Assembly (NCBI RefSeq): GCF_011764425.1
Contig: NZ_BLPF01000003.1
Location: 1,426,001-1,490,000 of the forward strand
Source: Phytohabitans houttuyneae
GTDB lineage: Bacteria > Actinomycetota > Actinomycetes > Mycobacteriales > Micromonosporaceae
Direction: 5' to 3'
DNA length: 64,000 nt
The translations under genes were made by a program, and so were the position numbers. This document shows positions 10,339-47,200 of the stretch, in pieces. Position 1 is the stretch's first letter. The number at the start of each line of letters is the position of its first letter. The notes below the pieces were generated by a model that saw only the letters and a list, made by a program, of their open reading frames with translations, did no database searches and had not been told where the DNA came from.

Positions 10339-10450
10339 CGGACGGTGAGGCCGCGGGAACGCACCCCGAGAAGACGCTCCGCTGCGCGCCACGTCTCCCC
10401 GGGGGCCCGCGCAACGGTCCGGACCACGGCGGACGTCGCGGTAGCCCAAA
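10339..10450 (+). repeat. dispersed intergenic repeat, copy A (split)
   Basis: The core, 10411-10447, carries the palindrome GGTCCGGACC followed by ACGGCGGACGTCGCGGTAG and is nearly identical to the other three copies (22873-22929 inverted, 35915-35971, 47143-47200). The upstream half, GGTGAGGCCGCGGGA (10344-10358), is also present but is separated from the core by about 50 extra bases. It ends just before the 3' end of the winged-helix gene. Confidence 0.8.
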
Positions 10451-10454
10451 ATCG

Positions 10455-11515
10455 TCAGGCGATCTCCAGCCGGCCGCCGCCGTGGAGCTCGAGCAGCGGC
10501 TCGGCCTCGGCGCCCACCTCGGCGCGCTCGCGGCGGGTCAGCGGGCGCAGCGGCTCGACGCGCAGCACGCCCCCGGCCACCGACCAGGTCGCGGCGACCC
10601 GGCCGTCGACGAGCACGAACCGCGCGCCCTGCACGCTCAGCCCGCGATGCTCCTGGTCGATGATGCGGCTCCGGTCGTCGAAGCCGAGCACCGCGTTGTC
10701 GAACGCGGGCAGGAACCGCACCGGCGCCGGTGTCCGCGGGTCGGGCAGCGCGCCGTCCTCGACGTCGAGGAGCTCGCGCCGCCGCTCGTCGCGGAAGACG
10801 CGCAGCCGCGGCCGCAGGCGGGTGACCGACTCGCGCAGCCCGCTCAGGCCGGACCAGGCGCGGATGTCGGCGCTGGCCGCCGGGCCGAACGCCGCCAGGT
10901 AGCGCAGCACCAGCGCGTCGACCGCCTCGGGCGTCTGCGGCTCGGGCGCGGTGCCCAGCCACCGGTCGACCGTGACGTTCAGCGCGGCGCCGCGCTGCCC
11001 CCACAGGCCGCGCGGCGGCACCTGGACCAGCGGGACCAGGCAGCTGAGCGCGTCGCCGAGGTCGCGGGTGGCGACGCCGGGCCAGCGGTCGGCGATCTCG
11101 CGGGCGGCGTCGGTGAGCATGCGCGGCTCGCCCTCGAAGAGCGGGCGCCCGGCCTCGGCCAGCTCGGCCAGGTCGACACCGGGCAGGTTGCGGCGCAGCG
11201 TGGCCCACATGCGCGCCTCCAGCATCGGCTGGTGCACGCCGCGCAGCGCGAGCGCGTCAGCCGCGGTGACCACGTGGAGCGTGCGGCGCATCAGCAGCGT
11301 GCGGACGGCCGTGCGCTCCTCGACAAGCTTCGACAGCTCGTGCGGGTCGAACGCCACAAGGCGGCTCCACAGCCCCACGAACGGCTCCTGCGGCTCCTGC
11401 GCCTGATGCCCACGAGGTGCGAAAGCGCGGCGTGCGCGGTCAGGTCGTGGCGGCGCAGCAGGAGCTGGCGGGCCAGCAGGGCGCGGTTGAGCGCGCGGTT
11501 GTCCAGGACGTTCAC
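10455..11515 (-). pseudogene. winged-helix DNA-binding (HTH_42/YcaQ-like) protein, one frameshift
   Basis: Two minus-strand frames join into one protein of about 353 residues. The first frame starts at GTG 11515 (VNVLDNRALNRALLARQLL) and reads to HLVGI; the second continues FVGLWSRLVAFDP to the stop at 10455. Restoring one G on the plus strand near 11405 gives the family's expected junction LVGIQAQEPQEPFVGLWSRL. Members are the crosslink-repair glycosylase-like YcaQ/AlkX group with tandem winged helices; the motif RRTLHVVTAADAL and the late segment FLPAFDNAVLGFDDRSRI agree. Either a sequencing error or a recent loss of function. An ATG start inside the second frame would give only the last 307 residues. 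Confidence 0.8.
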
Positions 11516-11581
11516 GCGCGTCACCGTAGCGCGACGGTCCGACACGGCGTTTAGTGACAGACGGCAGAGAGGAGTCCTGGA

Positions 11582-12406
11582 ATGTGCACTGAGGAGTGTC
11601 TGAAGCAGGCCGGCCGGGCGGGAGCGTTCAGCCGCCGGGCGGCGCTGGCCGGTGCGGCCGCGATAGCGGCGTCCGCCGTGATGGCCGAGCCGGCGCAGGC
11701 CGGTCCCAAGGGCGGGTACGGGCGCGGGGTGCGTGACCTCACCCACCCGCTGACCACGACGTTCCCGGCATTCGCGCCGGGTGAGGAGCCGAGCCGCCGC
11801 ACGTACGTGACGATCGAGGAAAACGGCTACTACATGCAGGAGTGGCGGATCCTCGAGCACTACGGCACGCACGTCGACGCACCCGGCCACTTCATACCCG
11901 GTGGGCGCACCTCGACCGAGCTCGCCGCCGCCGAGCTCGTCACGCCCGCCGCGGTCATCGACATCGCGGCCCGCGCGGCCCGCGACCCCGACACGACCGT
12001 CACGGTCGCGGACATCAAGGGCTACGAGCGGCGGTACGGGCGGATCCCGCGGGACGCGGCCGTCCTCATGTACTCCGGCTGGGCGGCGAAGGCCGGCGAC
12101 CCGGACGCCTACCGCGGCACCGACGCGGGCGGCACGCTGCACTTTCCCGGCTTCAGCGCGGAGGCGACCGAGTGGCTGCTGCGCCACCGCCGCATCCGCA
12201 GCCTCGGCGTCGACACGCTCAGCATCGATCCGGGCGTTTCGTCCACGTTCGACACGCATCTGATCCTGACCGGCGCCGACCGGTACGGCGTGGAGAACCT
12301 CGCCGGCCTCGACCGCCTCCCCCGCTCCGGCGCCACGATCATCGTCGGCCTCATCCCCTACCAGGAGGGCTCCGGCGGCCAGGCCCGCGTCTTCGCCACC
12401 TGGTGA
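11582..12406 (+). CDS. Tat-exported cyclase-family (kynurenine-formamidase-like) hydrolase
   Basis: 274 residues. FSRRAALAGAAAIAASAV near residue 16 is a twin-arginine signal, cleaved around AQA. The mature part has the cyclase-family metal motif HYGTHVDAPGHF (about residue 100), DLTHPLTTTFPAF at the N-terminus and LGVDTLSIDPG with HLILTGADRYGVENLAG towards the end. The family binds a divalent metal through HxGTHxDxPxH and hydrolyses arylformamides or cyclic amides; export by Tat suggests an extracytoplasmic substrate. It is preceded by GAGAGGAG about 10 bases before ATG. The AI-2E-type gene follows after 12 bases. The substrate cannot be read from sequence. Confidence 0.85.
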   Translation: MCTEECLKQAGRAGAFSRRAALAGAAAIAASAVMAEPAQAGPKGGYGRGVRDLTHPLTTTFPAFAPGEEPSRRTYVTIEENGYYMQEWRILEHYGTHVDAPGHFIPGGRTSTELAAAELVTPAAVIDIAARAARDPDTTVTVADIKGYERRYGRIPRDAAVLMYSGWAAKAGDPDAYRGTDAGGTLHFPGFSAEATEWLLRHRRIRSLGVDTLSIDPGVSSTFDTHLILTGADRYGVENLAGLDRLPRSGATIIVGLIPYQEGSGGQARVFATW

Positions 12407-12418
12407 GGGTGTACGTCG

Positions 12419-13510
12419 ATGCGCCGCGGGGTACCTGGCGGCGTGTCGACCGACCTGGCCGAGAAGCCAACAAAGACGCGCGGCGTCTGGGAGTCCCTGT
12501 CCTGGTCACTGCGGTACGGCGCGGTGGCCTGCGGCTGCGTGCTGCTCATCGCGGCGGTGCTGTACCTGGTCATCCGCCTCGCGGTGCTGGTGGCGCCGTT
12601 GACCCTCGCGATCATCGTGGCGCTGCTGCTGGCCGCGCTGCTGCAGCCGATCGCGGACGCCGTACGCCGGCTGCGCGCGCCCGACTCGCTCGCCGCCCTC
12701 GCGGCCATCGCGGTCATGCTCGCGGTCGTCGTGCTGCCCGCCGTCCTGCTCTGGCAGGTCACCGCCGAACAGGCCGCCGACCTGCCGGAGCAGCTCGCCC
12801 AGGGCTGGGACCGCACCCGCGAGTGGATCGTCGGCGCCGGCCTGAGCGAGGAGCAGCTGCAGTCGCTGAGCGACCGCATCCGCGAGCGGGCCCGCGCGGC
12901 GGGCGGCGGCCTCACCGCCGCGGCGATGGGCGTCTTCGAGGCGCTGGGCGCCGCGCTGCTCGCGATCGTGCTGCTCTTCTTCCTGCTCAAGGACGGCCGC
13001 CGGATGGCCGCGTGGGCCACCGCCCGCCTCCCCGAACGCAGCCGCGAGCGCGCCGGCCAGGCCGGGCGTGACGGTTGGACGGCGCTGTCCCGCTACGCGC
13101 GGGGCACGGTCGCGGTCGCCGCGATCGACGCGCTGGGCATCGGGCTCGGCCTTGTGCTGATCGGGGTACCGCTCGCGCTGCCGCTGGCGCTGCTCACGTT
13201 CGTCGCCGCGTTCGTGCCGATCATCGGCGCGACCGTGGCCGGCGCGGTCGCCGTGCTCGTCGCCCTCGCCGCGAACGGCCCCGTCGACGCCCTCCTGGTC
13301 CTGCTCGTGGTCGTCGCGGTCCAGCAGATCGAGGGCAACCTCCTCGAGCCGCTCATCATGGGCCGCGCGCTGCGCCTGCACCCCGCGGTCGTCCTCGTCG
13401 CGGTCACCGCCGGCGCCCTGACGGCCGGCGTGGCGGGCGCGCTGGTCGCCGTACCCATCACCGCGGTCACCTACCGGGTGTGGCGCTCGTGGAGCGAGGG
13501 CGCGCCCTAA
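12419..13510 (+). CDS. AI-2E/PerM-family membrane permease
   Basis: 363 residues with about eight hydrophobic helices in the PerM (AI-2E transporter) arrangement: two pairs at the N-terminus, a soluble segment (about 115-165) with EEQLQSLSDRIRERA, then a cluster ending in the family signature FVPIIGATVAG and a segment VVAVQQIEGNLLEPLIMG. Substrates vary in this family and true AI-2 transport is rare, so the substrate is unknown. ATG 12419 follows the cyclase stop by 12 bases with GAGGG in front; GTG 12443 would remove eight odd residues and is a possible alternative start. Confidence 0.88.
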   Translation: MRRGVPGGVSTDLAEKPTKTRGVWESLSWSLRYGAVACGCVLLIAAVLYLVIRLAVLVAPLTLAIIVALLLAALLQPIADAVRRLRAPDSLAALAAIAVMLAVVVLPAVLLWQVTAEQAADLPEQLAQGWDRTREWIVGAGLSEEQLQSLSDRIRERARAAGGGLTAAAMGVFEALGAALLAIVLLFFLLKDGRRMAAWATARLPERSRERAGQAGRDGWTALSRYARGTVAVAAIDALGIGLGLVLIGVPLALPLALLTFVAAFVPIIGATVAGAVAVLVALAANGPVDALLVLLVVVAVQQIEGNLLEPLIMGRALRLHPAVVLVAVTAGALTAGVAGALVAVPITAVTYRVWRSWSEGAP

Positions 13511-13520
13511 GATCGTCGAG

Positions 13521-14072
13521 GTGTTCCGGCCGACGTACCCCATCCACACGCGACGGTTGACGCTCCGCCCGTTCACGATGGGCGACCTCGACCCGCTGTG
13601 GGGGTACCAGCGGCTGCCCGAGGTGGCCGAGCACATGCTCTGGGAGCCGCGCGACCTCATGCAGGTGACGGTCGCGCTGCAGCGGATGGTCAAGGAGGAC
13701 CGCTTGGCCCGCGAGGGCGACTGCCTGAGCCTCGCGGTGGTCGAACGGGCGACCGGCGTGCTGGTCGGCCAGGTAGAACTGGTGTGGCTCAGCGACCGCA
13801 GCGGCCAGGGCGAGATCGGGTACGTGCTCGACCCCCGCTACCAGGGCGCCGGCCTGGCCACCGAGGCGGCGCGCGAGGTGCTGCGGCTCGGCTTCGACGG
13901 CCTGCGGCTGCACCGCGTCATCGGCCGCTGCTCGGCCGCCAACACCGCCTCGGCCGCCCTGCTGGAGCGCCTCGGCATGCGCCGCGAGGCCCACTTCCGG
14001 CAGAACCAGCTGGTGAAGGACGCCTGGCGCGACGAGTACGTGTACGCGATGCTCCGCGCCGACTGGAGTTGA
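13521..14072 (+). CDS. GNAT-family N-acetyltransferase (RimJ/RimL type)
   Basis: 183 residues. THRRLTLRPFTMGDLDPLW-type opening (here TRRLTLRPF), the acetyl-CoA loop GYVLDPRYQGAGLATEAAR and the RimJ-like end NTASAALLERLGMRREAHF mark it as an acetyltransferase of the Acetyltransf_3 group, which modifies protein N-termini or small amines. It starts at GTG 13521 with no ribosome-binding site but with TAAGAT at 13508-13513, placing the likely transcript start at or next to the GTG. It follows the permease by 10 bases but appears to have its own promoter. Confidence 0.87.
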   Translation: MFRPTYPIHTRRLTLRPFTMGDLDPLWGYQRLPEVAEHMLWEPRDLMQVTVALQRMVKEDRLAREGDCLSLAVVERATGVLVGQVELVWLSDRSGQGEIGYVLDPRYQGAGLATEAAREVLRLGFDGLRLHRVIGRCSAANTASAALLERLGMRREAHFRQNQLVKDAWRDEYVYAMLRADWS

Positions 14073-14117
14073 GCGTCCGCCGGGCTTTCCGCCCGCGGAA
14101 CCGGCCTTTGGAGTCGG

Positions 14118-14201
14118 GGGTCCCGGCGAGCCCAAGGGCCGGGTCACGTGTGGCTCGGGGATCCCGGCGAGCCGCCGCGGGCCGGGTCACGTGCGGCTCG
14201 G
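14118..14201. repeat. two-copy direct repeat of about 42 bp
   Basis: Two imperfect copies, about 14118-14158 and 14159-14201, share TCCCGGCGAGCC, then GGGCCGGGTCACGTG and GGCTCGG. They lie between the acetyltransferase stop and the convergent permease stop. No protein or RNA is suggested. Confidence 0.6.
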
Positions 14202-14244
14202 CTTCTCGCGGGTCCGGGTGAGGGCGTCCGGCGAGCGGCGGTGG

Positions 14245-15462
14245 TCAGCTCACGGCGAGCAGGGTGGCCACGCCCGCGGCGAGTGCGAGGACCGCGGTGA
14301 CCGCGCCGGTGGCGGCGAAGCGGCCCCACGGGATGGTGAGGCCCGCGGCGCGGCAGCGTTCGGCCCACAGCAGCGTGGCCAGCGACGCCCACGGGGCGAC
14401 GAGCGGGGCGACGTTGGTGCCGACGAGCAGGCCGAGCAGCTGGGTGTGGTTGGCGGCGGGCACGACCGCCTCGGCGGCCACGTAGGCCGGCAGGTTGTTG
14501 AGCGCGTTGGACAGCGCACCGCCGGCCGCCGCGGCCCGCACCACGCCGACGGCGCCGGGGTCCGTGCCGATCAGCGCGGACATCCAGCCGGAGAGCCCGT
14601 GCCGGCCGAGCGTGTCGACGACGAGGAACAGTCCGGTCACGAAGACCAGCAGCCGCCACGGCACGAGGCTCCAGGTGAGGCCGCCGCGGTCGTAGCGCCA
14701 GTAGGCCACCACCAGGCCGGCCGCGCACACCGCCGACACCGCGTAGATGCTCAGTCCCGCCACGATGCCGGCCATGAACGCGGCGCATGCCGTCGAGGCG
14801 GCCACGAAGAGCGCGCGGTTGCGGGGGCGGACCCGCGCCGGCGGCTCGTAGCGGGGCGGGTTGCGGCGCCAGTAGAACACCCACAGGCTCGCCGCCACCA
14901 CGACCAGCACGGCCGCCTGCGGCAGCGCCATGCGGGCGGCGAACCCGAGCGGTTCGAGGCGCACCCGCTCCATGGCCAGCAGGTTGGTCAGGTTGGAGAC
15001 CGGGAGCAGCAGGCTCGCGGTGTTCGCCAGCCAGACCGTGGTCATGGCGAGCGGCAGCGGCGCGAGGCCGGCGCGGCGGGCGGTGGCCAGCATGACCGGG
15101 GTGAGCAGCACCGCCGTGGTGTCCAGGTTGAGAAACGCCGTGGTGAGCGTGGCGAAGAGCACCGTGAGCAGGAAGAGCGCGGGGTTGCGCCCGCGGGCCG
15201 CGATGGTCAGCCGGGCGGCGAGGACGTCGAAGACCTGGGCTCGGGCGGCGAGCTCGGCCAGCACGACGACGGTGCCGAGGAAGACCAGCAGCGGGAGGAT
15301 GCGCTCGTCGGTCGCCCGCGCGTCGCGCCACGGCAGCAGCCCCACCGCGACGGCGACAAGCCCGAGTGCGAGCAGGCCGGCGCCGAGCCAGTCCAGCGGG
15401 CTGACCCCCCGGGCCGCGCACTCCGAGGCACCCTGCTTGACCTGCACGTACGCCATGATCAC
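14245..15462 (-). CDS. ArsB/SLC13-like anion permease
   Basis: 405 residues with about 10-12 hydrophobic helices. Two half-repeats each carry an asparagine-rich hairpin typical of the IT/SLC13 superfamily: SNLTNLLAMERV (about residue 155-166) and NALNNLPAYVAAEAV (about 310-324), with TTAFLNLDTTAVLLTPV before the first. Relatives include ArsB, CitMHS and NhaD; which ion or organic anion it moves is not evident, and there are no ars genes nearby. It is monocistronic and ends convergently with the acetyltransferase. Confidence 0.83.
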   Translation of the reverse strand: MIMAYVQVKQGASECAARGVSPLDWLGAGLLALGLVAVAVGLLPWRDARATDERILPLLVFLGTVVVLAELAARAQVFDVLAARLTIAARGRNPALFLLTVLFATLTTAFLNLDTTAVLLTPVMLATARRAGLAPLPLAMTTVWLANTASLLLPVSNLTNLLAMERVRLEPLGFAARMALPQAAVLVVVAASLWVFYWRRNPPRYEPPARVRPRNRALFVAASTACAAFMAGIVAGLSIYAVSAVCAAGLVVAYWRYDRGGLTWSLVPWRLLVFVTGLFLVVDTLGRHGLSGWMSALIGTDPGAVGVVRAAAAGGALSNALNNLPAYVAAEAVVPAANHTQLLGLLVGTNVAPLVAPWASLATLLWAERCRAAGLTIPWGRFAATGAVTAVLALAAGVATLLAVS

Positions 15463-15513
15463 ACACCGGTGCGGCGGGCGCCGAAGTGCCCGCCGCCGGT
15501 GTTCGCCGGCGCC

Positions 15514-16509: not shown

Positions 16510-16531
16510 GATTCTCACCCTTCGCTTGCCC

Positions 16532-16546
16532 AGTTAGCGTTAACAC
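16532..16546. promoter_or_regulatory. LacI-family operator upstream of the GH43 gene
   Basis: AGTTAGCGTTAACAC differs by few bases from the LacI-family palindrome TGTTAGCGCTAACA that controls pentose and arabinoside genes in Actinomycetota. It lies 23 bases before the GH43 start, where it would block transcription until the sugar ligand is bound. The LacI protein at 35979-37025 is one candidate binder but is not adjacent. Confidence 0.6.
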
Positions 16547-16663
16547 ACCCTCACGTAGACAGTTATGCTTGTCAATGCAGCGCTGAAATTTTCCTGTGGA
16601 TTTCGGACAGTTCGCCGCAGCGACCGGTGAGTGTTGGCGGCTCGGTTCGCGACGTGGGGCTCA

Positions 16664-16747
16664 GTTCGCGGGCGTGGCGGGCGCGGTTCGCGGGCGTGGC
16701 GGGCGCGATTCGCGGGCGTGGCGGGCGCGGTTCGCGGGCGCGGCCGC
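16664..16747. repeat. 22-bp tandem repeat, about 3.7 copies, upstream of the ABC operon
   Basis: Units begin at 16664, 16686, 16708 and 16730; each reads TTCGCGGGCGTGGCGGGCG with one variable base in front (G or A), and the last copy is partial. The array ends about 60 bases before the ABC ATPase start, so it lies in the promoter or leader region. Confidence 0.85.
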
Positions 16748-21838: not shown

Positions 21839-22864
21839 GTGACAGAGGTGCACCGCGCGGCGCGGATCGAGGACGCGGTGCACGACGTCCTCGAAGGCTG
21901 GCTACGCAAGCGCGGCTGGTCCGCGACCGTCGTCCCGTACACCGGCTACGGCGCCCCCGGCTGGGTCCGCGTGATGGGCCGCGTCATGGTCAGCCGCCCC
22001 GACAAGGGCCGCCCCCGCAAGGCCGGCAAGCTCCGGGGCTGGCGCAGCTTCACCACCGTCTCCGCCAAGGACGCGCCGGTCACCGTCGAGGTCGCCGGCC
22101 GCCGCCACGAGGCCGTCGCCGACCGGGGCGGCTTCATCGACACCGTGGTCAAGGCCGACCTCGAACCCGGCTGGCGCACCGTCGCCATCAGCAGCGGCAC
22201 CGGCGCCCCGGTCGAGGCCCCGGTCCGCATCGTCGACCCGGACGCCCGCTTCGGCGTGGTATCCGACATCGACGACACCGTGATGGTCACCGCGCTGCCC
22301 CGCCCGCTGCTCGCCGCGTGGAACACCTTCGTCCTCGACGAACACGCCCGCGCCGCCGTCCCCGGCATGGCCGTCCTCTACGAACGCCTCACCACCGCAC
22401 ACCCCGGCGCGCCCGTCTTCTACCTGTCCACAGGCGCGTGGAACGTCGCACCCGCCCTCACCCGCTTCCTCTCCCGCCACCTCTACCCGCTCGGCCCGCT
22501 CCTGCTCACCGACTGGGGCCCGCAGCGGGACCGCTTCTTCCGCAGCGGCCGCGCGCACAAGCTGGCCGCGCTCAACCGGATGGCCGAGGAGCTGCCGTGG
22601 ATCCGGTGGCTGCTCATCGGCGACGACGGCCAGCACGACCCGGAGATCTACCGCACCTTCGCCGAGACGCACCCCGACCACGTGGCCGCGGTCGCGATCC
22701 GCGCGCTCTCCCCCACCCAGGCCGTCCTCGCCGGCGGCCTCCCGTCGCCGGCGGGCCAGGAGCTCACCACCTCCGACCGGGCCGGCAAGCACTGGTTTTC
22801 CGCCCCGGACGGCGCGGGCCTGTGGAAACTGCTCGCCGAGTCGGGCGCTCTCAACCCCGAATAA
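21839..22864 (+). CDS. App1-family (DUF2183) phosphatase-like protein
   Basis: 341 residues starting at GTG 21839. The C-terminal half has the App1 phosphatidate-phosphatase/HAD-like signature SDIDDTVMVTALP (about residue 141), PVFYLSTGAWNVAP and the distal acidic loop LLIGDDGQHDPEIYRTFAE. The first 130 residues form a beta-rich domain with VTVEVAGRRHEAVADRGGFI. Yeast App1 dephosphorylates phosphatidate; bacterial homologues are uncharacterised. It starts 22 bases after the kinase stop and is cytoplasmic by sequence. Its 3' end meets dispersed-repeat copy B. Confidence 0.85.
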   Translation: MTEVHRAARIEDAVHDVLEGWLRKRGWSATVVPYTGYGAPGWVRVMGRVMVSRPDKGRPRKAGKLRGWRSFTTVSAKDAPVTVEVAGRRHEAVADRGGFIDTVVKADLEPGWRTVAISSGTGAPVEAPVRIVDPDARFGVVSDIDDTVMVTALPRPLLAAWNTFVLDEHARAAVPGMAVLYERLTTAHPGAPVFYLSTGAWNVAPALTRFLSRHLYPLGPLLLTDWGPQRDRFFRSGRAHKLAALNRMAEELPWIRWLLIGDDGQHDPEIYRTFAETHPDHVAAVAIRALSPTQAVLAGGLPSPAGQELTTSDRAGKHWFSAPDGAGLWKLLAESGALNPE

Positions 22865-22872: not shown

Positions 22873-22929
22873 GGGCTACCGCGGCGTCCGCCGTGGTCCG
22901 GACCGTTGCTCCCGCGGCCTCACCCTTCG
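22873..22929 (-). repeat. dispersed intergenic repeat, copy B (inverted)
   Basis: On the minus strand this reads GGGTGAGGCCGCGGGAGCAA, then CGGTCCGGACCACGGCGGAC and GCCGCGGTAGCCC, matching copies A, C and D. It lies between two convergent genes, and its GGGTGAGG supplies the TGA stop of the gene at 22920-23591. Confidence 0.88.
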
Positions 22930-23591
22930 TCGCTGGTCGCGGTCCACACAAGCTTGTCCACAGGGCTGGCCGGCGTCGCGGCCAGGACCGGGCTGTGGAC
23001 GACCCGGTCGACCACCGCCTGTGGACCGCCGACGAAAGTGGCGGTGTCGTCAACTTCCGTGGCGACGCACCAGGAACGGTCCGCCGGCCACAGCAGGCTC
23101 GGCGACTGCGGGGTAAAGCCGAACGGTGCCGGCTGGTGCCACCCCATCTCCAGCGCCGCCCGCAGCGGTCCGCGAAACAGCAGGTAGTCACGGCCGGGAA
23201 GGCGCAGCCGCGGCAGCCCCCATACGCGCGGTGACACGCCCGGGGTCACCGGCAGCCGCACCGGCGGGCCGCCGCGCTCCTCGTCCACAGCCCACGCGGC
23301 GACGCCGCCGCCGTCGACCCATCCCCAGCCTTCCCACAGGGCGTGGTAGCACTCCTGGTCACCGGTCGCCGGGGCGAGCACGTCGAGCAGGGTGGCCAGC
23401 GCCGCCGGGGCGAGGCTGCCGACCCGCACGTCACCGCCGGGGTCATCGCCCGTCTCGACGGGATGCGGCACCCGCGCGTACGCCGCGAAGCCCGGCGGCA
23501 CCACCGAGCCGACCGTGCCGTCCAGCCCACGCAGCCGGGTGACGATCCAGTCGCCGGGCGTCACGTCGGCGAGCGGCGTCAGGTTGTCCAT
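22920..23591 (-). CDS. conserved-looking hypothetical protein
   Basis: About 223 residues from ATG 23591 (MDNLTPLADVTPGDWIV). It is soluble, rich in Trp, Gly and Pro, with segments CYHALWEGWGWVDG and RDYLLFRGPLRAALEMGWH, and an end containing WPADRSWCVATEVDDTATFV. The pattern resembles an actinobacterial family of unknown function encoded near house-keeping genes, but I cannot name it. It is divergent from the small gene at 23631. The stop codon lies within dispersed-repeat copy B. Confidence 0.75.
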   Translation of the reverse strand: MDNLTPLADVTPGDWIVTRLRGLDGTVGSVVPPGFAAYARVPHPVETGDDPGGDVRVGSLAPAALATLLDVLAPATGDQECYHALWEGWGWVDGGGVAAWAVDEERGGPPVRLPVTPGVSPRVWGLPRLRLPGRDYLLFRGPLRAALEMGWHQPAPFGFTPQSPSLLWPADRSWCVATEVDDTATFVGGPQAVVDRVVHSPVLAATPASPVDKLVWTATSDEG

Positions 23592-35910: not shown

Positions 35911-35914
35911 ACCG

Positions 35915-35971
35915 CGGACGGTGACGTGGCGGGAGCAGCGGTCCGGACCACGACGGACGTCGCGGTAGCTC
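35915..35971 (+). repeat. dispersed intergenic repeat, copy C
   Basis: Reads CGGACGGTGACGTGGCGGGA, then GCAGCGGTCCGGACCACGAC and GGACGTCGCGGTAGCTC, matching copies A, B and D. Lies between two convergent genes and ends 8 bases before the stop of the LacI gene. Confidence 0.88.
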
Positions 35972-35978: not shown

Positions 35979-37025
35979 CTATCTCGTGCGCGGGCGGGCG
36001 GTGCTCTGCCGCACGATGAGGTCGGTGGTGAGCTCGACCCGGCGCTCCCGCGGCGCCTGGCCGGACGCGATCGCGACGAGCATGGCGGCGGCGGTCGTGC
36101 CCATCCGCTTGAGCGGCTGCCGCACGGTGGTCATCGGCGGGCCGGCCCACCGGGTGAACGGCAGGTCGTCGAAGCCGACGACGCTGAGGTCGTCGGGGAT
36201 GCGCAGCCCGGCCTCGCGGGCCGCCTCGTAGACGCCGTGCGCCTGCAGGTCGTTGGTGGCGAAGAGCGCGGTGGGCGGCTCCGGCAGCCGCAGCAGCGCG
36301 GCGGTCTCGCGGGCCGCGCCCTCGACGTAGAGCGGGCCGACCCGCACAAGGTCGGGGTCGACCGGCACGCCGGCCTGGTCCATCGCGGCGCGGAAGCCGT
36401 CGAGCCGGGCCCGGCAGAAGGGCCACTTCAGGTTGCCGCAGAGCATGCCGATCCGCCGGTGGCCGAGCTCCAGCAGGTGGCGGGTGGCGACCAGCGCGCC
36501 GCTGTAGTTGGCCGCGCCGACCGAGGGCGTGTCGTGCAGCGGCTCGCCGGTGGGGTCGAGCGTGACCAGCGGGATCGAGCCGGTGGCCAGCTGCGCCTGC
36601 TGGTGCGTGGTCAGGTCGGAGAGCACGGCGATCACGCCCATCGGCCGGCGGGACAGCACCTGCTCGGTCCAGCCGGCGCCGGGGGTGAGCCGCCCCTGCA
36701 TGGTGGTGAGCACGACGCCGAGCTTCTGGTCGCGGGCGACCTCCTCGACCCCCTGGATGATCTCCAGCGCCCACAGGCTGTCGAGCGCGTGGAAGACCAG
36801 CTCGATCAGCGGCGCCTGGGCCGCCGCGTCACCGCGCTGGTAGCCGTGCTCGTGCAGCACCGCCTCGACCCGCCGCCGGGTGCTCAGCGCGACGCCCGCC
36901 TGCCCGTTGATGACGCGGGACACGGTGGGCGCGGAGACGCCGGCCAGCCGCGCGATCGTGGCCACGGTGACCTTGCCGCGGCGACGGCCGTCGCCGACGG
37001 AGGCGGTGGCGCCCGTCGCGGTCAC
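35979..37025 (-). CDS. LacI-family transcriptional repressor
   Basis: 348 residues from GTG 37025. The HTH reads VATIARLAGVSAPTVSRVIN (about 20-40), then the hinge and a periplasmic-binding-like sugar domain (LIELVFHALDSLWALEIIQG, RPMGVIAVLSDL, HRRIGMLCGNLKWPF, PTALFATNDLQAHGVYEAA, LSVVGFDDLPFTRWAGPP). TACAAT (minus strand, 37038-37033) lies 7 bases before the start, giving a likely leaderless message. It faces the CE1-CBM2 esterase, so xylan-derived sugars are plausible ligands; it could also act on the operator at 16532. Confidence 0.92.
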   Translation of the reverse strand: MTATGATASVGDGRRRGKVTVATIARLAGVSAPTVSRVINGQAGVALSTRRRVEAVLHEHGYQRGDAAAQAPLIELVFHALDSLWALEIIQGVEEVARDQKLGVVLTTMQGRLTPGAGWTEQVLSRRPMGVIAVLSDLTTHQQAQLATGSIPLVTLDPTGEPLHDTPSVGAANYSGALVATRHLLELGHRRIGMLCGNLKWPFCRARLDGFRAAMDQAGVPVDPDLVRVGPLYVEGAARETAALLRLPEPPTALFATNDLQAHGVYEAAREAGLRIPDDLSVVGFDDLPFTRWAGPPMTTVRQPLKRMGTTAAAMLVAIASGQAPRERRVELTTDLIVRQSTARPRTR

Positions 37026-37261
37026 GACCGGAATTGTACGGTGCAAGCCGCCCCCGTGTTGCGACACCTCTTCCGGAACTCCCGGATGTGTCCGCGTGGT
37101 CGTTGCTCTCCCCCGGCCGATCGCCCGGCCCGCGCGCCCCGGCATTTTGTCCATTCTGACCTCAGCATATAGATGGACGTTTGCACGCTGATCTGTTCCG
37201 GTACATACTACGGAATGTTTCAGCGCCCTGGGCATCGAACGGTTCGGGAGGACCACCCCGC

Positions 37262-41642: not shown

Positions 41643-41709
41643 CGCACACCTCCCTCCACTGTGGACGATGTCCGCGGCACCGGCCGCTTGTTAAGAGATA
41701 CTGAACACC

Positions 41710-42339
41710 TTACGTCACCACCGGCCCCTCGGGCGGCTCGGCCGTCGTGATCTTGTCCACCGCCGGGGAGCGCAGCCAGCGGCGGAAGTCCTCGGCCAGG
41801 ATCGCCGGGTCCTCGAGCAGGTAGTCGGTGCGGAACTGTGCGGTGCCCACGTACACCCGCACCAGCAGCGGCCCCGGCGCCTGCCGTGCCCAGTCGAGCG
41901 CCGCGCCGAGCTCCTCCTCGGTGCGCACCTCGCGGCCGCCGGCCCAGCCGCAGGCCAGCGCCATCGCGACGAGGTCGGCGGAGGCGGAGGCGGTGGGCTG
42001 CCCACCCGTGGCCAGGTACACCCCGTTGTCCAGCAGCACGACGACGAGGTTGTCGGGCTTGAGGTGGCCCGCCGTGCCGAGCACGCTCAGGCCCATCAGC
42101 AGCGACCCGTCGCCCTCGACCGCGACCACCTTGCCGTCCCGCCGGTCGCGCAGGCCCAGGGCAAGGCCGAGCGCCACGCCGACGGTCTGGCCCATGGCGT
42201 CGAGGTTGACCAGGTGGTGGGGGCGGCGGCCGGCGACGGCGACCATCTCGCGGGCGGTGCCGCCGAGCGTGAGGACCACCGGTTCGGCGGGGAACGCCGC
42301 GTCGATCCGCCGCAGCACGTCCGCGCGGTTCAGCGCCAT
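41710..42339 (-). CDS. TPP-dependent 2-oxoacid decarboxylase, beta (TPP-binding) subunit
   Basis: 209 residues from ATG 42339. The TPP/Mg motif is VEGDGSLLMGLSVLGTAG ending in VVVLLDNGVY (GDG then about 25 residues to N). It resembles the beta half of sulfopyruvate/phosphonopyruvate decarboxylases (ComE-like). It starts 2 bases after the alpha-subunit stop. No pepM, comA-C or other phosphonate or coenzyme M gene is nearby, so the substrate is more likely another 2-oxo acid. Confidence 0.85.
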   Translation of the reverse strand: MALNRADVLRRIDAAFPAEPVVLTLGGTAREMVAVAGRRPHHLVNLDAMGQTVGVALGLALGLRDRRDGKVVAVEGDGSLLMGLSVLGTAGHLKPDNLVVVLLDNGVYLATGGQPTASASADLVAMALACGWAGGREVRTEEELGAALDWARQAPGPLLVRVYVGTAQFRTDYLLEDPAILAEDFRRWLRSPAVDKITTAEPPEGPVVT

Positions 42340-42341
42340 CG

Positions 42342-42890
42342 TCAGCCGCCCATCAGGTTGACGAGGGTGAACACCGGCCGGTGCGTGGTGCGCGAGTACG
42401 TCCAGGCGCGCTTGATCTCCGGCGCCCAGGACTCCACCGGGGTGCGCGCGTCGAGCTGGAACCACCGCACGCCGGCCGCGTCGAGGATCGCCTCGACCCG
42501 CTCGCTGACCGTATGGATCATCGAGTTGTACTCGCCCAGCCCGCCGCGCCGCGCGACCACGCCGTACAGCGGCACGTGGTACGGCTGGGGGAACGTGAGC
42601 AGCACGGTCAGCAGGTTGCCCACGCCGTTGTCCTGGAAAACCATGACCGGCCGGCGCCCGGCCAGCTCCAGGCCGGAGGTGACCGCGACACCTTCCTCCT
42701 CGCGCGGCATCGCGAAGACCGTGCGCCCCGGGCGCGCACCCGGCCCGGTGATGAAGTGGTCGAGGACCACGCCGAGCGTGCTGCTGGCCAGGTGCAGCAC
42801 GAAGTCGGGGTCGATGCTCTCGATCCCCTCGATCACCGCCTGGCTGCGCGCCGCGTGGATGGCGGCCAGCCGCGCCGCGCCGTCACCCAC
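42342..42890 (-). CDS. TPP-dependent 2-oxoacid decarboxylase, alpha (PYR) subunit
   Basis: 182 residues: pyrimidine-binding half with the catalytic Glu in FAMPREEEGVAVTSGLELAG and PVMVFQDNGVGNLLTVLLTF, like ComD and phosphonopyruvate decarboxylase N-terminal halves. It pairs with the beta subunit to decarboxylate a 2-oxo acid to an aldehyde. Its start overlaps the end of the RraA-like gene by 8 bases, so the genes are coupled. Confidence 0.85.
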   Translation of the reverse strand: MGDGAARLAAIHAARSQAVIEGIESIDPDFVLHLASSTLGVVLDHFITGPGARPGRTVFAMPREEEGVAVTSGLELAGRRPVMVFQDNGVGNLLTVLLTFPQPYHVPLYGVVARRGGLGEYNSMIHTVSERVEAILDAAGVRWFQLDARTPVESWAPEIKRAWTYSRTTHRPVFTLVNLMGG

Positions 42891-43518
42891 GCCCGCTCAC
42901 GTCCTCGATGCCGAGCACCTCGAAGGTCGTCGCGCCCTCCCGCAGCCGCGCGAAGCCGGCCTCCTCCCGCTCCCGCCGGGCCTCGGCGGCGTCGAGCACC
43001 GCGGCCACCCGGGCGGCCGGCACGACCACCACGCCGTCGTCGTCGGCGAGCACGTAGTCGCCGGGCGCGACCAGCACGCCGCCGGCGACGACCGGCTCGC
43101 CGACCGACCGGACGGTCCGTTTCACGGTGCCGCGCACGCTGACGCCGGCCGACCAGACCGGAAAGCCCATGCGGCGCAGTGCCGCGGTGTCCCGGCAGCC
43201 GCCGTCGATCACCAGGCCGGCCACGCCGCGGGCCCGCGCGGCGACCGCGAGGATCTCGCCCCAGTAGCCGGCCAGGTGGCCGCCGGCCGCGACGACCAGC
43301 ACGTCACCCGGGCCGGCGGCGAGCACGGCGCGGTGTACCGCCAGGTTGTCGCCGGGATGGCAGTCCGCGGTGACCGCCCGGCCGGCGAGGGTGACCCCGC
43401 TCTGGATCGGCCGGATCCCCGGGTCGAGGTCGCCGGACCGCCCGGCGGCCTCGTGGACGGTCGCCGCGTCGAGGTCGGCCAGGCGGGCGACCGGGTCACG
43501 TGGGGCGGGCGCCGCCAT
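42883..43518 (-). CDS. RraA-like aldolase/decarboxylase (HMG/CHA aldolase type)
   Basis: 211 residues from ATG 43518. DLDAATVHEAAGRSGDLDPG opens the fold; GDNLAVHRAVLAAGPGDVLV, the family core GLVIDGGCRDTAALRRMGFP (Arg and Asp for metal and pyruvate) and VLVAPGDYVLADDDGVVVVP are all present. Metal-dependent members cleave 4-carboxy-4-hydroxy-2-oxoadipate or related hydroxy-oxo acids to pyruvate and oxaloacetate, and decarboxylate oxaloacetate. The start overlaps the upstream gene by 23 bases. Exact substrate unknown. Confidence 0.86.
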   Translation of the reverse strand: MAAPAPRDPVARLADLDAATVHEAAGRSGDLDPGIRPIQSGVTLAGRAVTADCHPGDNLAVHRAVLAAGPGDVLVVAAGGHLAGYWGEILAVAARARGVAGLVIDGGCRDTAALRRMGFPVWSAGVSVRGTVKRTVRSVGEPVVAGGVLVAPGDYVLADDDGVVVVPAARVAAVLDAAEARREREEAGFARLREGATTFEVLGIEDVSGRG

Positions 43519-44176
43519 CCGCACCTCCAGGTTCGGTGAGCTGTACCGCCCAGGGTGCCACCGCGACGATCTCGCGGTGGTGGCGCGGGGCCTCACACTC
43601 GTCGACGACGGCGACCGCGAGGTCCGCGTACGACAGCGTCCCCGTCGACAGCACGCCCGTGCCCCCGGTGCGGTACCGCCCGGTGCGCGCGGCCTCAGCG
43701 TCCAGCAGCGTGGGCGGCGGCACCAGCAGCACCCAGTCCAGCGCCGGCCCGCCGGACCGCAGCACCTCGATCTGCGCCGCGTGCCCGAGCGAGAAGGGCC
43801 GGTACTCGGCGGGGTAGTCCGGCGCGTCGTGCACGGCCACGCCCGGCGCGGTCTCGAGCGTGCTGCCGATGCCGATCCCCACCAGGCGGGCGACGCCGGC
43901 GCGGGCCAGGCCGTCGGCGAGGGCGCGCGCCGCGGCCGGGAAGAAGTCGGCCGCCGGCACGTCCAGCCGCGCGGCCGCGTGCACCGCCGCGTCGTGTCCC
44001 GCGGCCAGGGCCGCCACGTCCTCCGCCGAGGTCACGTCGCCGGCGACCGCGTCCAGATCGGGGTACCGGCCGGGGTCGCGCACCACCGCGGTGACCTGAT
44101 GTCCCCGCGCGGCCGCCTCGGCGGCGACCCGCCGCCCGGCCCGACCGCCGGCACCGAAAACGATGACCTTGCCCAT
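43496..44176 (-). CDS. NAD(P)-binding NmrA/SDR-like oxidoreductase
   Basis: 226 residues. Rossmann motif VIVFGAGGRAGRRVAAEAAA with GHQVTAVVRDPGRY and DVTSAEDVAALAAGHDAAVH, typical of atypical SDRs of the NAD(P)H-binding (YwnB/NmrA) group; these may be flavin reductases or redox sensors. First gene of the aldolase-decarboxylase operon and divergent from the HxlR regulator 88 bases away, a frequent gene pair. Confidence 0.87.
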   Translation of the reverse strand: MGKVIVFGAGGRAGRRVAAEAAARGHQVTAVVRDPGRYPDLDAVAGDVTSAEDVAALAAGHDAAVHAAARLDVPAADFFPAAARALADGLARAGVARLVGIGIGSTLETAPGVAVHDAPDYPAEYRPFSLGHAAQIEVLRSGGPALDWVLLVPPPTLLDAEAARTGRYRTGGTGVLSTGTLSYADLAVAVVDECEAPRHHREIVAVAPWAVQLTEPGGADGGARPT

Positions 44177-44264
44177 GCTCGCGCTCCCTCCACGGTGACG
44201 TCGCCGCGGACGGTAGCCGGCAGGGCCTCGGTTACCGCAACGATAGTGGGCGTACGGTGGGCGG

Positions 44265-44621
44265 GTGAGCGAGCCACTGGACCCGGACATGTTCACCGGC
44301 TGCGACACCGCCCCGCTGATCCGGATCGGCGACAAGTGGACCGCGAAGATCATCGCCTGCCTGCGGGACGGGCCGCGCCGCTTCTCCGAGCTCCAGGTGC
44401 CGCTGCGCGGCGTCACGCCGAAGGTGCTCACCGAGTCCCTGCGCGCGATGCACCGCGACGGACTTGTCACCCGCACGGCGTACGAGGAGGTCCCGCCCCG
44501 CGTCGAGTACGCCCTGACGCAGCTCGGCCGCTCGCTGCTGGAGCCGATGGCCGCCTGCTGCGCGTGGAGCCGGCGCCACCTGCCCGCCGTGCAGGCGGCC
44601 CGCGAGGCTAGCGGGCTTTGA
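44265..44621 (+). CDS. HxlR-family winged-helix regulator
   Basis: 118 residues from GTG 44265. IRIGDKWTAKIIACLRDGPR, RRFSELQVPLRGVTPKVLTE, LRAMHRDGLVTRTAYEEVPP and YALTQLGRSLLEPM define HxlR. A single Cys near the N-terminus (MFTGCDTAPL), in the usual position for redox or aldehyde sensing in this family, is kept. TACGGT (44253-44258) lies 6 bases before the start: leaderless. It probably controls itself and the divergent oxidoreductase-aldolase operon, possibly in response to reactive aldehydes. Confidence 0.9.
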   Translation: MSEPLDPDMFTGCDTAPLIRIGDKWTAKIIACLRDGPRRFSELQVPLRGVTPKVLTESLRAMHRDGLVTRTAYEEVPPRVEYALTQLGRSLLEPMAACCAWSRRHLPAVQAAREASGL

Positions 44622-45117
44622 TCAGGCCCCGCACGTAGGCGGCCTGCCCCACGTGCTGGTCGTCGTCGTTGAGCACGCTGACCAGGCGCACGCCGAGCGT
44701 GACCGGCGGGTCCCAGCCCTCGTCGACCACCCGGTCGAGGTCCTTCGCGCTCAGCCCGCGTAGAAACTCGCTGGTGCGGGCGGCCACCGCGTCGAAGTAG
44801 CCGATCAGCGTCTCGGCGCTGTCCGGCCGGATCCGGTCGACCTGGCCGGCACTGTGCCCGTACCCCGTGTCGTCGGACCCGGGCGCCAGGCCGAAGCGGG
44901 TCGCCCAGCCGTCGCGGACCCATACCTGCTCCTCGCCCATGAGGTCGGCGACGTGGTCGTCCTGGATGCGGGTGAGGTGCCAGACCAGCCAGCCCACCGA
45001 GTTGGCACCGGCCGCGGGAACCCAGTGCAGCTCCTCCGGGCTCAGGCCGTCGACGGCGGATCGGACCAGGTCGGGAAGGCGGTCGAACGCCTCTGCCAGC
45101 ACCTCTCTCGCGTCCAC
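44608..45117 (-). CDS. DinB-family (mycothiol-dependent transferase-like) protein
   Basis: 169 residues, four-helix DinB/DUF664 fold with three His metal ligands: NSVGWLVWHLTRIQDDHVAD (first His) and LNDDDQHVGQAAYVRGL near the end. ELHWVPAAGANSVGWLVWH is typical of the actinobacterial group that uses mycothiol. TAAGGT (minus strand, 45129-45124) is 6 bases before GTG 45117, so leaderless. The 3' end overlaps the HxlR gene by 14 bases. Confidence 0.87.
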   Translation of the reverse strand: MDAREVLAEAFDRLPDLVRSAVDGLSPEELHWVPAAGANSVGWLVWHLTRIQDDHVADLMGEEQVWVRDGWATRFGLAPGSDDTGYGHSAGQVDRIRPDSAETLIGYFDAVAARTSEFLRGLSAKDLDRVVDEGWDPPVTLGVRLVSVLNDDDQHVGQAAYVRGLIKAR

Positions 45118-45212
45118 GCCATCACCTTATCTGACCGGCCGGCAGCCACCGGCGGCGCACTGTCCACTGTGGTGATCTCGCCATGGTGGTGCCGGCTCGC
45201 TAACGTCGATAC

Positions 45213-46160
45213 ATGGACCGCGCCGGCCTTCCCCTGCACACCGGACCGGAGTCCGTCGATCTTGTCGTCGCCGACGTCGGCAGCCTCGGCCTGCGCGGCG
45301 AGCTCGGCATCGGCACGGCCATCGCCTCGGTCGCCGCGCTCGTCTGCGCGGGGCTCATCACGGCGGTGACGCTGGTGTTCGGCCAGTTCTCGCTGCCGCC
45401 GGTGCTCGGCACCACGGCCGGCGTGTTCACGGTCGCCGCGGCCGTGCTGTCCTGGCAGGTGCTGGGCGGCACGCGGCGGATCGAGTTCCGGCCGGCCCAC
45501 GACCCCGGCGTCGTCCGCGTCGTGGGCAGCGTGCGTTCCGAGGAGTACCCGATCTCGCGGCTGCGCCGGATCCTGCTGCGGCACACGGTCCAGCAGTCGC
45601 ACCGCTACCCCTTCGTCCTGCGCACCGCCGGCCAGGTCGGGCTGCGCCTGGAGTTCCACCGCGGCACGGTGCGGGAGTCGCTGCCCGGCGGCTTCGACGT
45701 GCCGGCGCTGGCCGACCGGCTGCGCGAGCTTGTCTCTCCGGCCGGCGTGCCGGTCGAGGTGGAGACCACCGGCCCGGCCGACTACGACCCGGCGGTCGCC
45801 GACGACGTCCTGCCCCGCGACGGCGTCGCGCTCGCCCTGATCGAGCGGCGGCCCCGCGACCGGCTGGCGGCGCGGCCGGGCTACCTCTTCTGGGACGAGG
45901 TCCGCGTCGCCTGGCAGGTGGTGTGGGACGTGCCGAGGGCCGCCGCGGCCAACGGGGTCCGCGCCCGGCGGCGCAGCTCGACCAACCCGCAGGGGCAGTA
46001 CGTGAGCTGGGTGGAGTACCGGGCGGTCGACGTGCAGCGGGTCGCCGACGCGATCGTCGCCGGCACCGCGACGCTCGAGCCGGCGTGGCGCACGGACACC
46101 GAGGAGGGCCTCGCGGCACTGGCCGCCGCGTCCGCGCCGCGCCGCAGGTGGCCCTGGTGA
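45213..46160 (+). CDS. hypothetical membrane protein
   Basis: 315 residues. Two membrane helices near the N-terminus (about 35-58 and 63-85) followed by a cytoplasmic or extracytoplasmic domain of about 230 residues rich in Arg and Val (YPISRLRRILLRHTVQQSHR, FWDEVRVAWQVVWDVPRAA, VEYRAVDVQRVADAIVAG). TAACGT at 45201-45206 is 6 bases before ATG, suggesting a leaderless transcript. No family recognised. Confidence 0.75.
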   Translation: MDRAGLPLHTGPESVDLVVADVGSLGLRGELGIGTAIASVAALVCAGLITAVTLVFGQFSLPPVLGTTAGVFTVAAAVLSWQVLGGTRRIEFRPAHDPGVVRVVGSVRSEEYPISRLRRILLRHTVQQSHRYPFVLRTAGQVGLRLEFHRGTVRESLPGGFDVPALADRLRELVSPAGVPVEVETTGPADYDPAVADDVLPRDGVALALIERRPRDRLAARPGYLFWDEVRVAWQVVWDVPRAAAANGVRARRRSSTNPQGQYVSWVEYRAVDVQRVADAIVAGTATLEPAWRTDTEEGLAALAAASAPRRRWPW

Positions 46161-46300
46161 CGATCCGGGCAATTTGACCAAAGTGGACGGTAGTCCGAAC
46201 TGACCGTAATGCCTTGGCTACAAGTCGCGTTACCCCTCCCAGGCGGCCTCGGGGCTTGGTAATCTGCCGCTCTCACGGCTGGGATCCAGGAGGTCTTCCA

Positions 46301-47044
46301 GTGACTGACAGCGGGATGAGAGGTCGTGTGAAAGGACTACTCGGAGGGCCCACGCCCTTCGTCAACGACACCCTGGAGCCGATGGACGTGTCCCCGAACG
46401 ACGCCAACGCCCAGCACCACGCCCTTCAGGTGCTCACGCTCGCCCAGCGCACGGGCGAGGAGCACATCGCGAGCGCCCGGCGCGAGTCGGACCGGATCAT
46501 CGCCGAGGCCCGCGCGCAGGCCGAGCAGGTGATGCGCGACGCCCAGTCGCACGCGCAGGTCCTGCAGAAGGAGGCGGAGAAGGCACTCGCCGACGCGCAC
46601 GCCTCCGCCGCGCAGATCACCGAGGCCGCGCAGGCCCACTCGGACGCCGCGCAGCGCAGCGCCGACGACATCCTCGGCGACGCCCGGGCCCGCGCCGACG
46701 AGCTGGTCAAGGCGTCCCAGGCCAGCGCCGACGAGCTGAAGCACCAGGCGCAGCAGCGGTTTGAGGACGTGGTCGGCAGCCTCGCCGCCAAGCGCGAGGC
46801 GCTGCAGCGGCAGATCGAGGCGCTGGAGCAGTTCGACCACGACTACCGGGCCCGGCTCACCTCGTTCATGCAGCACCAGCTCCGCTCGCTGTGGGTGGAC
46901 GAGCCGCGGGTCGACCCGCAGTCGATCGACGGCATCGAGGATTACGACGACGAGGTCGACGAGGCGGACCACCACCCCCGGGCCGCGCTCGAAGAGGCGA
47001 CCGTCGCGGTGCCGACCCAGGGCAGCAAGTCCGACCTGTCGTAG
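46301..47044 (+). CDS. DivIVA/Wag31-like coiled-coil protein
   Basis: 247 residues from GTG 46301, 7 bases after AGGAGG. A short N-terminus (RVKGLLGGPTPFVNDTLEP) precedes a long coiled coil (about residues 35-185) with the DivIVA-type runs ALQVLTLAQRTGEEHIASAR and ARAQAEQVMRDAQSHAQVLQ, ending in an acidic tail (DGIEDYDDEVDEADHH). Such proteins mark cell poles or septa and organise growth in actinomycetes. The N-terminal membrane-binding lysine motif of true Wag31 is not seen, so it is a paralogue. A strong terminator follows. Confidence 0.82.
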   Translation: MTDSGMRGRVKGLLGGPTPFVNDTLEPMDVSPNDANAQHHALQVLTLAQRTGEEHIASARRESDRIIAEARAQAEQVMRDAQSHAQVLQKEAEKALADAHASAAQITEAAQAHSDAAQRSADDILGDARARADELVKASQASADELKHQAQQRFEDVVGSLAAKREALQRQIEALEQFDHDYRARLTSFMQHQLRSLWVDEPRVDPQSIDGIEDYDDEVDEADHHPRAALEEATVAVPTQGSKSDLS

Positions 47045-47066
47045 CGGCGATCCAGCGCTCTTTCGA

Positions 47067-47092
47067 CCCGAGCCACCCGCGGGTGGCTCGGG
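47067..47092 (+). terminator. hairpin terminator of the DivIVA-like gene
   Basis: CCCGAGCCACCC (47067-47078) and GGGTGGCTCGGG (47081-47092) form a perfect 12-bp stem with a 2-base gap, followed by TTT, 22 bases after the stop. Confidence 0.9.
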
Positions 47093-47158
47093 TTTGCCGT
47101 GACCGGCGGCGGAGGGCGAGGCCGCTTTGCCGTGACCGGCGGCGGAGGGTGACGCCGC
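47093..47158. repeat. 33-bp tandem duplication leading into repeat copy D
   Basis: Two units, 47093-47125 and 47126-47158, both start TTTGCCGTGACCGGCGGCGG and differ at two or three positions. The end of the second unit is also the beginning of dispersed-repeat copy D, so part of the element has been duplicated here. Confidence 0.85.
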
Positions 47159-47200
47159 GGGAGCGACGGTCCGGACCCCGACGGGCATCGCGGTAGCTCA
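47143..47200 (+). repeat. dispersed intergenic repeat, copy D
   Basis: CGGAGGGTGACGCCGCGGGA, GCGACGGTCCGGACCCCGAC and GGGCATCGCGGTAGCTCA match copies A-C with a few changes; one change turns the stem GTCCG/CGGAC into GTCCG/CGGGC, which still pairs through a G-U. Confidence 0.85.

What the first reader, a model, noticed from the sequence alone, without database searches (positions are those of the whole stretch)
10339..47200. A dispersed ~60-bp palindromic repeat family, four copies in 37 kb
Copies at 10339-10450, 22873-22929 (inverted), 35915-35971 and 47143-47200 share GGTGAGGCCGCGGGAGC, the perfect palindrome GGTCCGGACC and GGACGTCGCGGTAGC. All are intergenic; three abut the 3' end of a gene within 1-8 bases and one supplies a stop codon. 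GTCCG and CGGAC can pair across 8 bases, and in copy D a change keeps pairing as G-U. Copies A, C and D have another hairpin just upstream. It is not a gene, terminator or IS end that I know; it looks like an actinobacterial REP-like element that may be moved by a RAYT-type transposase or act on RNA 3' ends.
Basis: seen in the sequence. Interest (0 to 1): 0.75.

Follow-up and report, generated by a model that had tools for sequence, protein, structure and literature searches.

The report
Convergent-gene palindromic repeat targeted by IS
Hundreds of copies of a roughly 60-base palindromic repeat sit between genes in the soil bacterium Phytohabitans, mostly where two genes end facing each other, and in related species a transposon uses the repeat as its landing site.

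Summary
The four copies are real and belong to a large family. A degenerate 36-mer finds 365 copies in the window's genome and 3-420 in five other Phytohabitans genomes; the reversed pattern finds 0. In 1.66 Mb of this genome a profile finds 85 copies: 0 inside called genes, 64 in convergent gaps, 21 co-directional, 0 divergent. Opposite-strand pairs point outwards (25 of 25). Of 32 orthologous gaps holding the repeat, 27 hold it in one species only. Pair-bearing convergent gaps have CTAG stops at both ends in 7 of 21, against 1 of 170. Some copies lie inside elements whose ends match an IS630-type IS in this genome. The RAYT idea fails: no Y1 transposase in 6 of 6 Phytohabitans genomes. All six IS4-family IS copies examined, five in P. 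flavus and one in P. suffuscus, sit at the palindrome; the five with both ends show it as a 10-base direct repeat. This is a REP-like repeat of a known kind with new features. How the core itself spreads is inferred, not shown.

The parts
10338..10358 (+). copy A, left half of the repeat
10359..10409 (+). copy A, 51-base block between the halves, a sub-form also seen in other own copies and in P. flavus and P. suffuscus
10410..10447 (+). copy A, right half with palindrome 10416-10425 and outer end GGTAGCCC
10209..10300 (+). N module: divergent, inverted relative of the repeat on the interior side of copy A
22873..22930 (-). copy B; palindrome 22895-22904; right end 8 bases from the stop of the gene ending at 22864; left half holds the stop of the opposite called gene (22920)
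35914..35971 (+). copy C; palindrome 35940-35949; right end 7 bases from the TAG stop of a LacI-type regulator gene (35979-37256, -)
47142..47199 (+). copy D; palindrome 47168-47177; right end faces a gene start; left half tandemly duplicated from about 47094

Best explanation
The repeat (core 'K', about 59 bases, -27 to +31 of the palindrome) is a Phytohabitans family of short REP-like repeats carried as an arm of larger non-coding insertions (K...K, or N...K with N a divergent inverted K). These land beside stop codons, mostly between convergent genes. A subset are MITE-like elements with IS630-type ends inserted at CTAG, the tetranucleotide shared by two overlapping TAG stops, so that both genes keep a stop codon. 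The palindrome GGTCCGGACC at the centre of K is in turn the specific target of an IS4-family insertion sequence that duplicates those ten bases. Shown: copy number, placement, outward orientation, mostly species-specific occupancy, IS4-family target with a 10-base direct repeat, CTAG enrichment at pair gaps, IS630-type ends on some elements. Inferred: that an IS630-type transposase moves K-bearing elements in trans, that solo K copies are remnants, and that no RNA function is needed.
For: 365 copies against 0 for the reversed pattern in the own genome; 372, 420, 191, 33 and 3 in five other Phytohabitans genomes, controls 0. 17-mer counts in 300 genomes of the family: 152, 73, 54, 35, 2 and 0 in Phytohabitans, at most 10 in any genome of another genus. 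64 of 85 own copies convergent, 0 divergent, 0 genic; P. suffuscus 13 convergent, 15 co-directional, 2 divergent of 30; P. flavus 28, 10, 2 of 40. 25 of 25 opposite-strand pairs outward, among 138 of 155 copies scoring over 45. Single copies: right end nearer a gene in 72 of 77 clear cases of 98 (21 ties). N matches in single-K gaps all in one orientation: 22 of 22, in 19 of 98 gaps; of 43 N copies, 28 have a K within 4 kb on the expected side and orientation, 1 on the other side, 14 none; N resembles inverted K (score 34, shuffles max 29, 0 of 500). For 18 of the 27 one-species gaps laid out, the K gap is 155-1862 bases and its counterpart -39 to 96. CTAG at both ends in 7 of 21 convergent pair gaps against 1 of 170 K-free gaps of 60 bases or more (p 5e-7). 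Two ~750-base T-bounded own blocks, 90% identical. IS630-type IS of 1167 bases with like ends and CTAG on both sides, DDE_3 and HTH_33. IS4-family IS (Nterm_IS4 in L288) at the palindrome in 6 of 6 copies examined, 11 of 11 IS ends found.
Against: IS630-type ends follow the stop in only 15 of 164 convergent gene ends at K gaps (2 of 330 without K), and the consensus used came partly from these loci. Before T-like matches in own loci CTGG (12 of 41) is as frequent as CTAG (11 of 41). Single-K gaps are not CTAG-flanked on both sides beyond controls (2 of 62 against 1 of 170, p 0.17). A search for decayed partners on the rest of single-K gaps gave no orientation bias (E 0.01: 9 opposite, 5 same; E 1: 15 and 17). 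Arms of a pair are no more alike than random copies (8.2 against 6.8 mismatches). P. flavus has 420 copies but 0 matches to the own T pattern at 3 mismatches. The IS630-type IS carries no recognisable K, and its two transposase parts lie in different frames. The species are too far apart (median protein identity 88-91%) for base-exact junctions in most gaps.
Confidence: 0.5

Rival explanations
1. K is an RNA or DNA signal at gene 3' ends (terminator, mRNA stabiliser or insulator between convergent genes), kept by selection; its orientation follows the gene it serves.
For: For single copies facing a 3' end the right end lies a median 31 bases from it; outward pairs give each convergent gene one copy and, in the gaps folded (8 folded, no shuffle control), form very long hairpins; the core is strongly conserved.
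Against: 27 of 32 orthologous K gaps are not shared; pairs in co-directional gaps are also outward, one copy facing a gene start; single co-directional copies face a 3' end in only 20 of 32; no convincing covariation; no Rfam match in the window.
Confidence: 0.22
2. A classical REP/REPIN moved by a RAYT (HUH tyrosine) transposase.
For: Copy number, extragenic placement, inverted doublets, GTAG within the right end.
Against: PF01797 in 0 of 6 Phytohabitans genomes, control rings in 5 of 14; doublet spacing 194-1723 bases in the own genome.
Confidence: 0.04
3. K is the terminal repeat of an IS4-family IS and its solo ends.
For: The right half of K abuts IS4-family transposase genes.
Against: On the copies with both ends the IS has its own terminal repeats inside, and both halves of K flank it with the palindrome on each side.
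Confidence: 0.02
4. K is a binding site for a chromosome-organising or regulatory protein that recognises the palindrome.
For: Perfect palindrome in the consensus, hundreds of copies.
Against: Conservation covers about 59 bases, and +4 is T instead of C, breaking the palindrome, in 31 of 114 distinct sequences.
Confidence: 0.1

Closest known systems
REP/BIME and REPIN repeats (GTAG- and CGTC-tagged families; PMC3733652, PMC3116915)
   Same: High copy, extragenic, near gene 3' ends, common between convergent genes, inverted doublets, termini supplying TAG stops; CGTC REPs, like K, have no known dedicated transposase (PMC3733652: abstract, sections 6 and 15 read; PMC3116915: passages).
   Different: Core about 59 bases rather than 20-40; no RAYT; doublet spacing wide and variable; neither tag clearly in the required position; the first paper's text does not contain the word Actinobacteria.
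ISRm22 (IS4 family) in Sinorhizobium meliloti REPs (PMC1525189: abstract and passages)
   Same: An IS4-family IS inserts into a REP at the palindrome axis, all its copies in REPs, with direct repeats.
   Different: Ten-base repeat equal to the whole palindrome here, six bases there; different phylum and repeat.
IS630/Tc1/mariner elements and their MITEs (PMC2170065: passages)
   Same: DDE_3 transposase; ends flanked by TA within CTAG. A CTAG preference of Shigella IS630 is the title of a cited 1991 paper, which is not held; only its title was seen.
   Different: Most K-bearing gaps show no recognisable IS630-type ends.
MIRU elements of mycobacteria (recalled, not looked up)
   Same: Short intergenic actinobacterial repeats touching stop codons (recalled).
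   Different: No sequence comparison made here.

Membership tests
REP-like extragenic palindromic repeats (broad sense) | short palindromic repeat, many copies, extragenic | tested here: met
   365 copies, control 0; 0 of 155 copies in stretches of three genomes inside a called gene (home-made gene caller)
REP-like extragenic palindromic repeats (broad sense) | preference for gene 3' ends / convergent gaps | tested here: met
   own 64 of 85 convergent, right end at a 3' end in 77 of 85; P. flavus 28 of 40, P. suffuscus weaker, 13 of 30
GTAG-REP / REPIN | cognate RAYT (Y1_Tnp) in the genome | tested here: not met
   0 of 6 genomes
GTAG-REP / REPIN | unpaired GTAG tag at the end of a simple stem-loop | tested here: inconclusive
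   GTAG is present at +25 to +28 in most copies (T at +26 in 81%) but overlaps the foot of the possible stem, on its 3' side
REPIN | inverted doublets with short, preferred spacing | tested here: not met
   inverted outward pairs 25 of 25, but spacing 194-1723 bases in the own genome
CGTC-REP | terminal CGTC, 8-9 bp stem, CCA-like tail | tested here: inconclusive
   definition read; an 8-bp stem with a 4-base loop fits some sub-forms by eye; families were not compared by profile
IS630-type MITE | terminal repeats like an IS630-type IS | tested here: inconclusive
   met for the T-bounded own elements; only 15 of 164 convergent K-gap ends
IS630-type MITE | TA/CTAG target duplication | tested here: inconclusive
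   of 8 T-bounded elements, 4 have TAG on both outsides in register, 2 more one base out, 2 not; pair gaps 7 of 21 against 1 of 170; one clean CTAG empty site (FL 9144-9840), a second with CTAA/CTAG (FL 183794-184282)
REP-targeting IS4-family IS | IS copies inserted at one point of the repeat with direct repeats | tested here: met
   6 of 6 copies examined at the palindrome; direct repeat in the 5 with both ends, one with one mismatch; other matches were not fetched

The most novel reading that the evidence does not exclude
In this high-GC genus the overlapping stop codons of convergent genes (CTAG) act as a common neutral landing site: IS630-type MITEs carrying palindromic arms enter there without hurting either gene, and the palindrome they bring in then becomes a dedicated home for a second, IS4-family transposon. 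Mobile DNA would thus build its own safe docking stations in layers.
Probability: 0.3. Interest if true: 0.7.

Novelty: new variant of a known kind. Interest (0 to 1): 0.5.

Why it matters
Tagged REPs are described predominantly in Proteobacteria (abstract of PMC3733652), the GTAG type tied to RAYTs. Here is a large family in an actinobacterial genus without a RAYT, with an outward orientation rule, a repeat-specific IS4-family transposon, and a link to CTAG stop codons that suggests how mobile DNA can enter a dense genome harmlessly. The IS4-family element is also a candidate for a site-selective transposase with a ten-base target.

Tried and rejected
RAYT/Y1 transposase: none. K as an IS4-family IS end: believed after (and written so in the notebook), rejected. 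Intra-repeat covariation: weak. Rfam: nothing at gathering score in the window. Viral contigs: no exact match to a 30-mer. Decayed transposase genes inside K gaps: tblastn of the called proteins against 88 K gaps of over 300 bases gave no common one; two gaps matched transposase-bearing entries. Pair arms being extra alike: not so. Decayed inverted partners of single K copies: no orientation bias with the K profile, though N was oriented. An apparent strand bias in the rows looked like an effect of the listing cap and was not used. DNA-level empty-site alignments were poorly resolved; protein-anchored gaps replaced them. Paper searches: 0 papers; 1,311 papers, 10 listed, all without the word Phytohabitans; 1 paper, Rhodococcus; 2 papers, other subjects. 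Cut-offs: K copies counted at nhmmer E 1e-6 or better; one search used 138 of 155 copies (score over 45), one search used 68 of 85 (score over 55); laid out 18 of 27 one-species gaps, chosen by me for small counterparts.
Full report
Observation. The four copies are present at the stated places and the palindrome count exceeds chance (4 against 0.40 expected, 0 of 100 shuffles). Copy A is split by a 51-base block, a sub-form seen in other copies and species. Right ends of A, B and C are 7, 8 and 7 bases from the facing stop; D faces a gene start. Genes were called with a codon-usage script of mine, not a curated annotation.

Family size and range. The window lies in contig C3 of an 11.34 Mb genome. 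The genus is Phytohabitans: same-genus genomes G057 and G091 have the contig lengths of P. suffuscus NZ_AP022871 and P. flavus NZ_AP022870, and the 84 stretches hit by a 30-mer in named genomes are all P. flavus, P. suffuscus or P. maris (records near the window's genome may be left out there). With up to 3 mismatches a 36-mer finds 365 (G000), 372, 420, 191, 33 and 3 copies in six Phytohabitans genomes, the reversed pattern 0 in each. In 300 genomes of the family no genome of another genus has more than 10 matches to a 17-mer that finds 152 in G000.

Anatomy. In 1.664 Mb (C1:1-1.6 Mb, of which 2,500 bases read N, plus the window) nhmmer finds 85 copies at E 1e-6 or better. Conservation runs from about -27 to +31 around the palindrome with weaker tails; the consensus is similar in three other species, a sample partly selected by the core. 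Own copies carry AAC before the palindrome in 57 of 74, P. flavus AGC in 25 of 37; nearest neighbours come from the same genome more often than with shuffled labels (0.61 against a mean of 0.40 and a maximum of 0.54 in 1000), so copies have multiplied or been homogenised within species. P. suffuscus copies, however, are not closer to each other than to own copies (9.4 against 8.2 mismatches).

Placement and direction. 64 copies lie in convergent gaps, 21 co-directional, 0 divergent, 0 in called genes: 1.11, 0.16 and 0 per kb. P. flavus agrees (28, 10, 2 of 40 in 0.4 Mb); P. suffuscus less strongly (13, 15, 2 of 30 in 0.8 Mb). Of gaps with two or more copies, 12 of 14 (own), 5 of 5 and 9 of 9 are simple outward pairs; the exceptions are a (-,-,+) and a (+,+) gap. 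Seven of these outward pairs are in co-directional gaps. Single copies point the right end to the nearer gene in 72 of 77 clear cases, 21 ties apart; in co-directional gaps they face a 3' end in 20 and a start in 12. A module N, a divergent inverted K, lies in fixed orientation on K's interior side: 22 of 22 matches in 19 of 98 single-K gaps; of 43 N copies, 28 with K on that side, 1 on the other, 14 with no K within 4 kb. Copy A is such an N-K arrangement. The K profile itself found no oriented partner in single-K gaps (9 opposite, 5 same at E 0.01).

Turnover. Of 228 own/P. suffuscus and 185 own/P. flavus orthologous gaps, 32 hold the repeat in at least one species and 5 in both. In 18 of the 27 one-species cases, laid out, the K gap is 155-1862 bases and the other -39 to 96. 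In the remaining 9 the K-free gap is 56-2398 bases, larger than the K gap in 4, so these gaps also change by other means. At FL 9144-9840 the empty own site is an overlapping CTAG and the filled site has CTAG on both sides; at FL 183794-184282 the ends are CTAA and CTAG.

CTAG and IS630. Convergent gaps with K pairs have CTAG stops at both ends in 7 of 21, single-K gaps in 2 of 62, K-free gaps of 60 bases or more in 1 of 170; CTAG ends number 22 of 42, 30 of 124 and 28 of 340. Among K-free overlapping gene pairs 12 of 73 share a CTAG. Two ~750-base own blocks, 90% identical, end in inverted CTAGAGACCTTTCGCGGTCA-like repeats with K copies inside. An IS630-type IS in the own genome (L290, 1167 bases; DDE_3 and HTH_33 in two overlapping frames) ends in AGACCTTTTGGGGTCAGGGTG with CTAG on both sides; a second copy (L289) is cut off by other sequence; the other 5 of 7 DDE_3 matches were not examined. 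That such a transposase moves K-bearing elements is inference. Against it: only 15 of 164 convergent K-gap ends show such termini (2 of 330 without K), CTGG precedes T-like matches as often as CTAG (12 and 11 of 41), and the own T pattern is absent from P. flavus at 3 mismatches, though variant T-like ends occur there.

IS4-family target. A transposase with Nterm_IS4 and DDE_Tnp_1 (L288) has 16 matches in P. flavus (some of them pieces of one copy), 9 in P. suffuscus, 9 in G031, 1 in P. maris, and 0 in G077 and in the own genome at E 1e-10. I examined six copies (five P. flavus, one P. suffuscus; the rest were not fetched): all lie at the palindrome of a K. The five with both ends found are flanked by GGTCCGGACC on both sides, one with a single change. 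The IS4-family ISRm22 does the like in S. meliloti REPs, at the palindrome axis with six-base repeats (PMC1525189, passages).

RNA. Pairing GTCCG/CGGAC is kept in 96.5% of cells against 95.4% in shuffles, with 4 double-change cells (shuffles 0.9); most change is one-sided, C to T at +4. An 8-bp stem in the right half shows no excess. This does not establish an RNA structure.

Verdict. A genuine, large, genus-restricted REP-like family; not RAYT-based; in relatives a specific target of an IS4-family IS; partly carried in IS630-type elements at CTAG stops. I found no paper on it, which cover open-licence papers only. The names IS30, IS256 and MIRU are recalled.

Noticed in passing
L211:299-1273 (G000:C4 ~127833-130856): An IS with rve and HTH_38 domains (IS30-like by recall) sits inside the hairpin module of a T-K element: another IS within these palindromic modules.
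   Followed up: partly
G000:C1:266829-266906: A 78-base inverted-repeat element (TGCGGTGACCGCT...AGCGGTCACCGCA) lies exactly between two CTAG stops; P. flavus has a K pair between CTAG stops at the same gene pair.
   Followed up: no
convergent gaps of G000 C1:1-1.6 Mb and the window: 31.8% of convergent-gap bases lie under at least three matches to other gaps, against 8.6% of co-directional and 1.5% of divergent ones; several other hairpin repeats share these gaps.
   Followed up: partly
window 47094-47153: The left half of copy D is tandemly duplicated (about 33 bases; read).
   Followed up: no
G000:C1:1067666-1069819: A called gene reads into an N module, so the insertion may have lengthened its C-terminus.
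   Followed up: no
G091:C1 ~4,117,000-4,123,000: A K-inserted IS4-family IS is itself interrupted by another IS (IS256-like by recall): nested insertions in one convergent gap.
   Followed up: no
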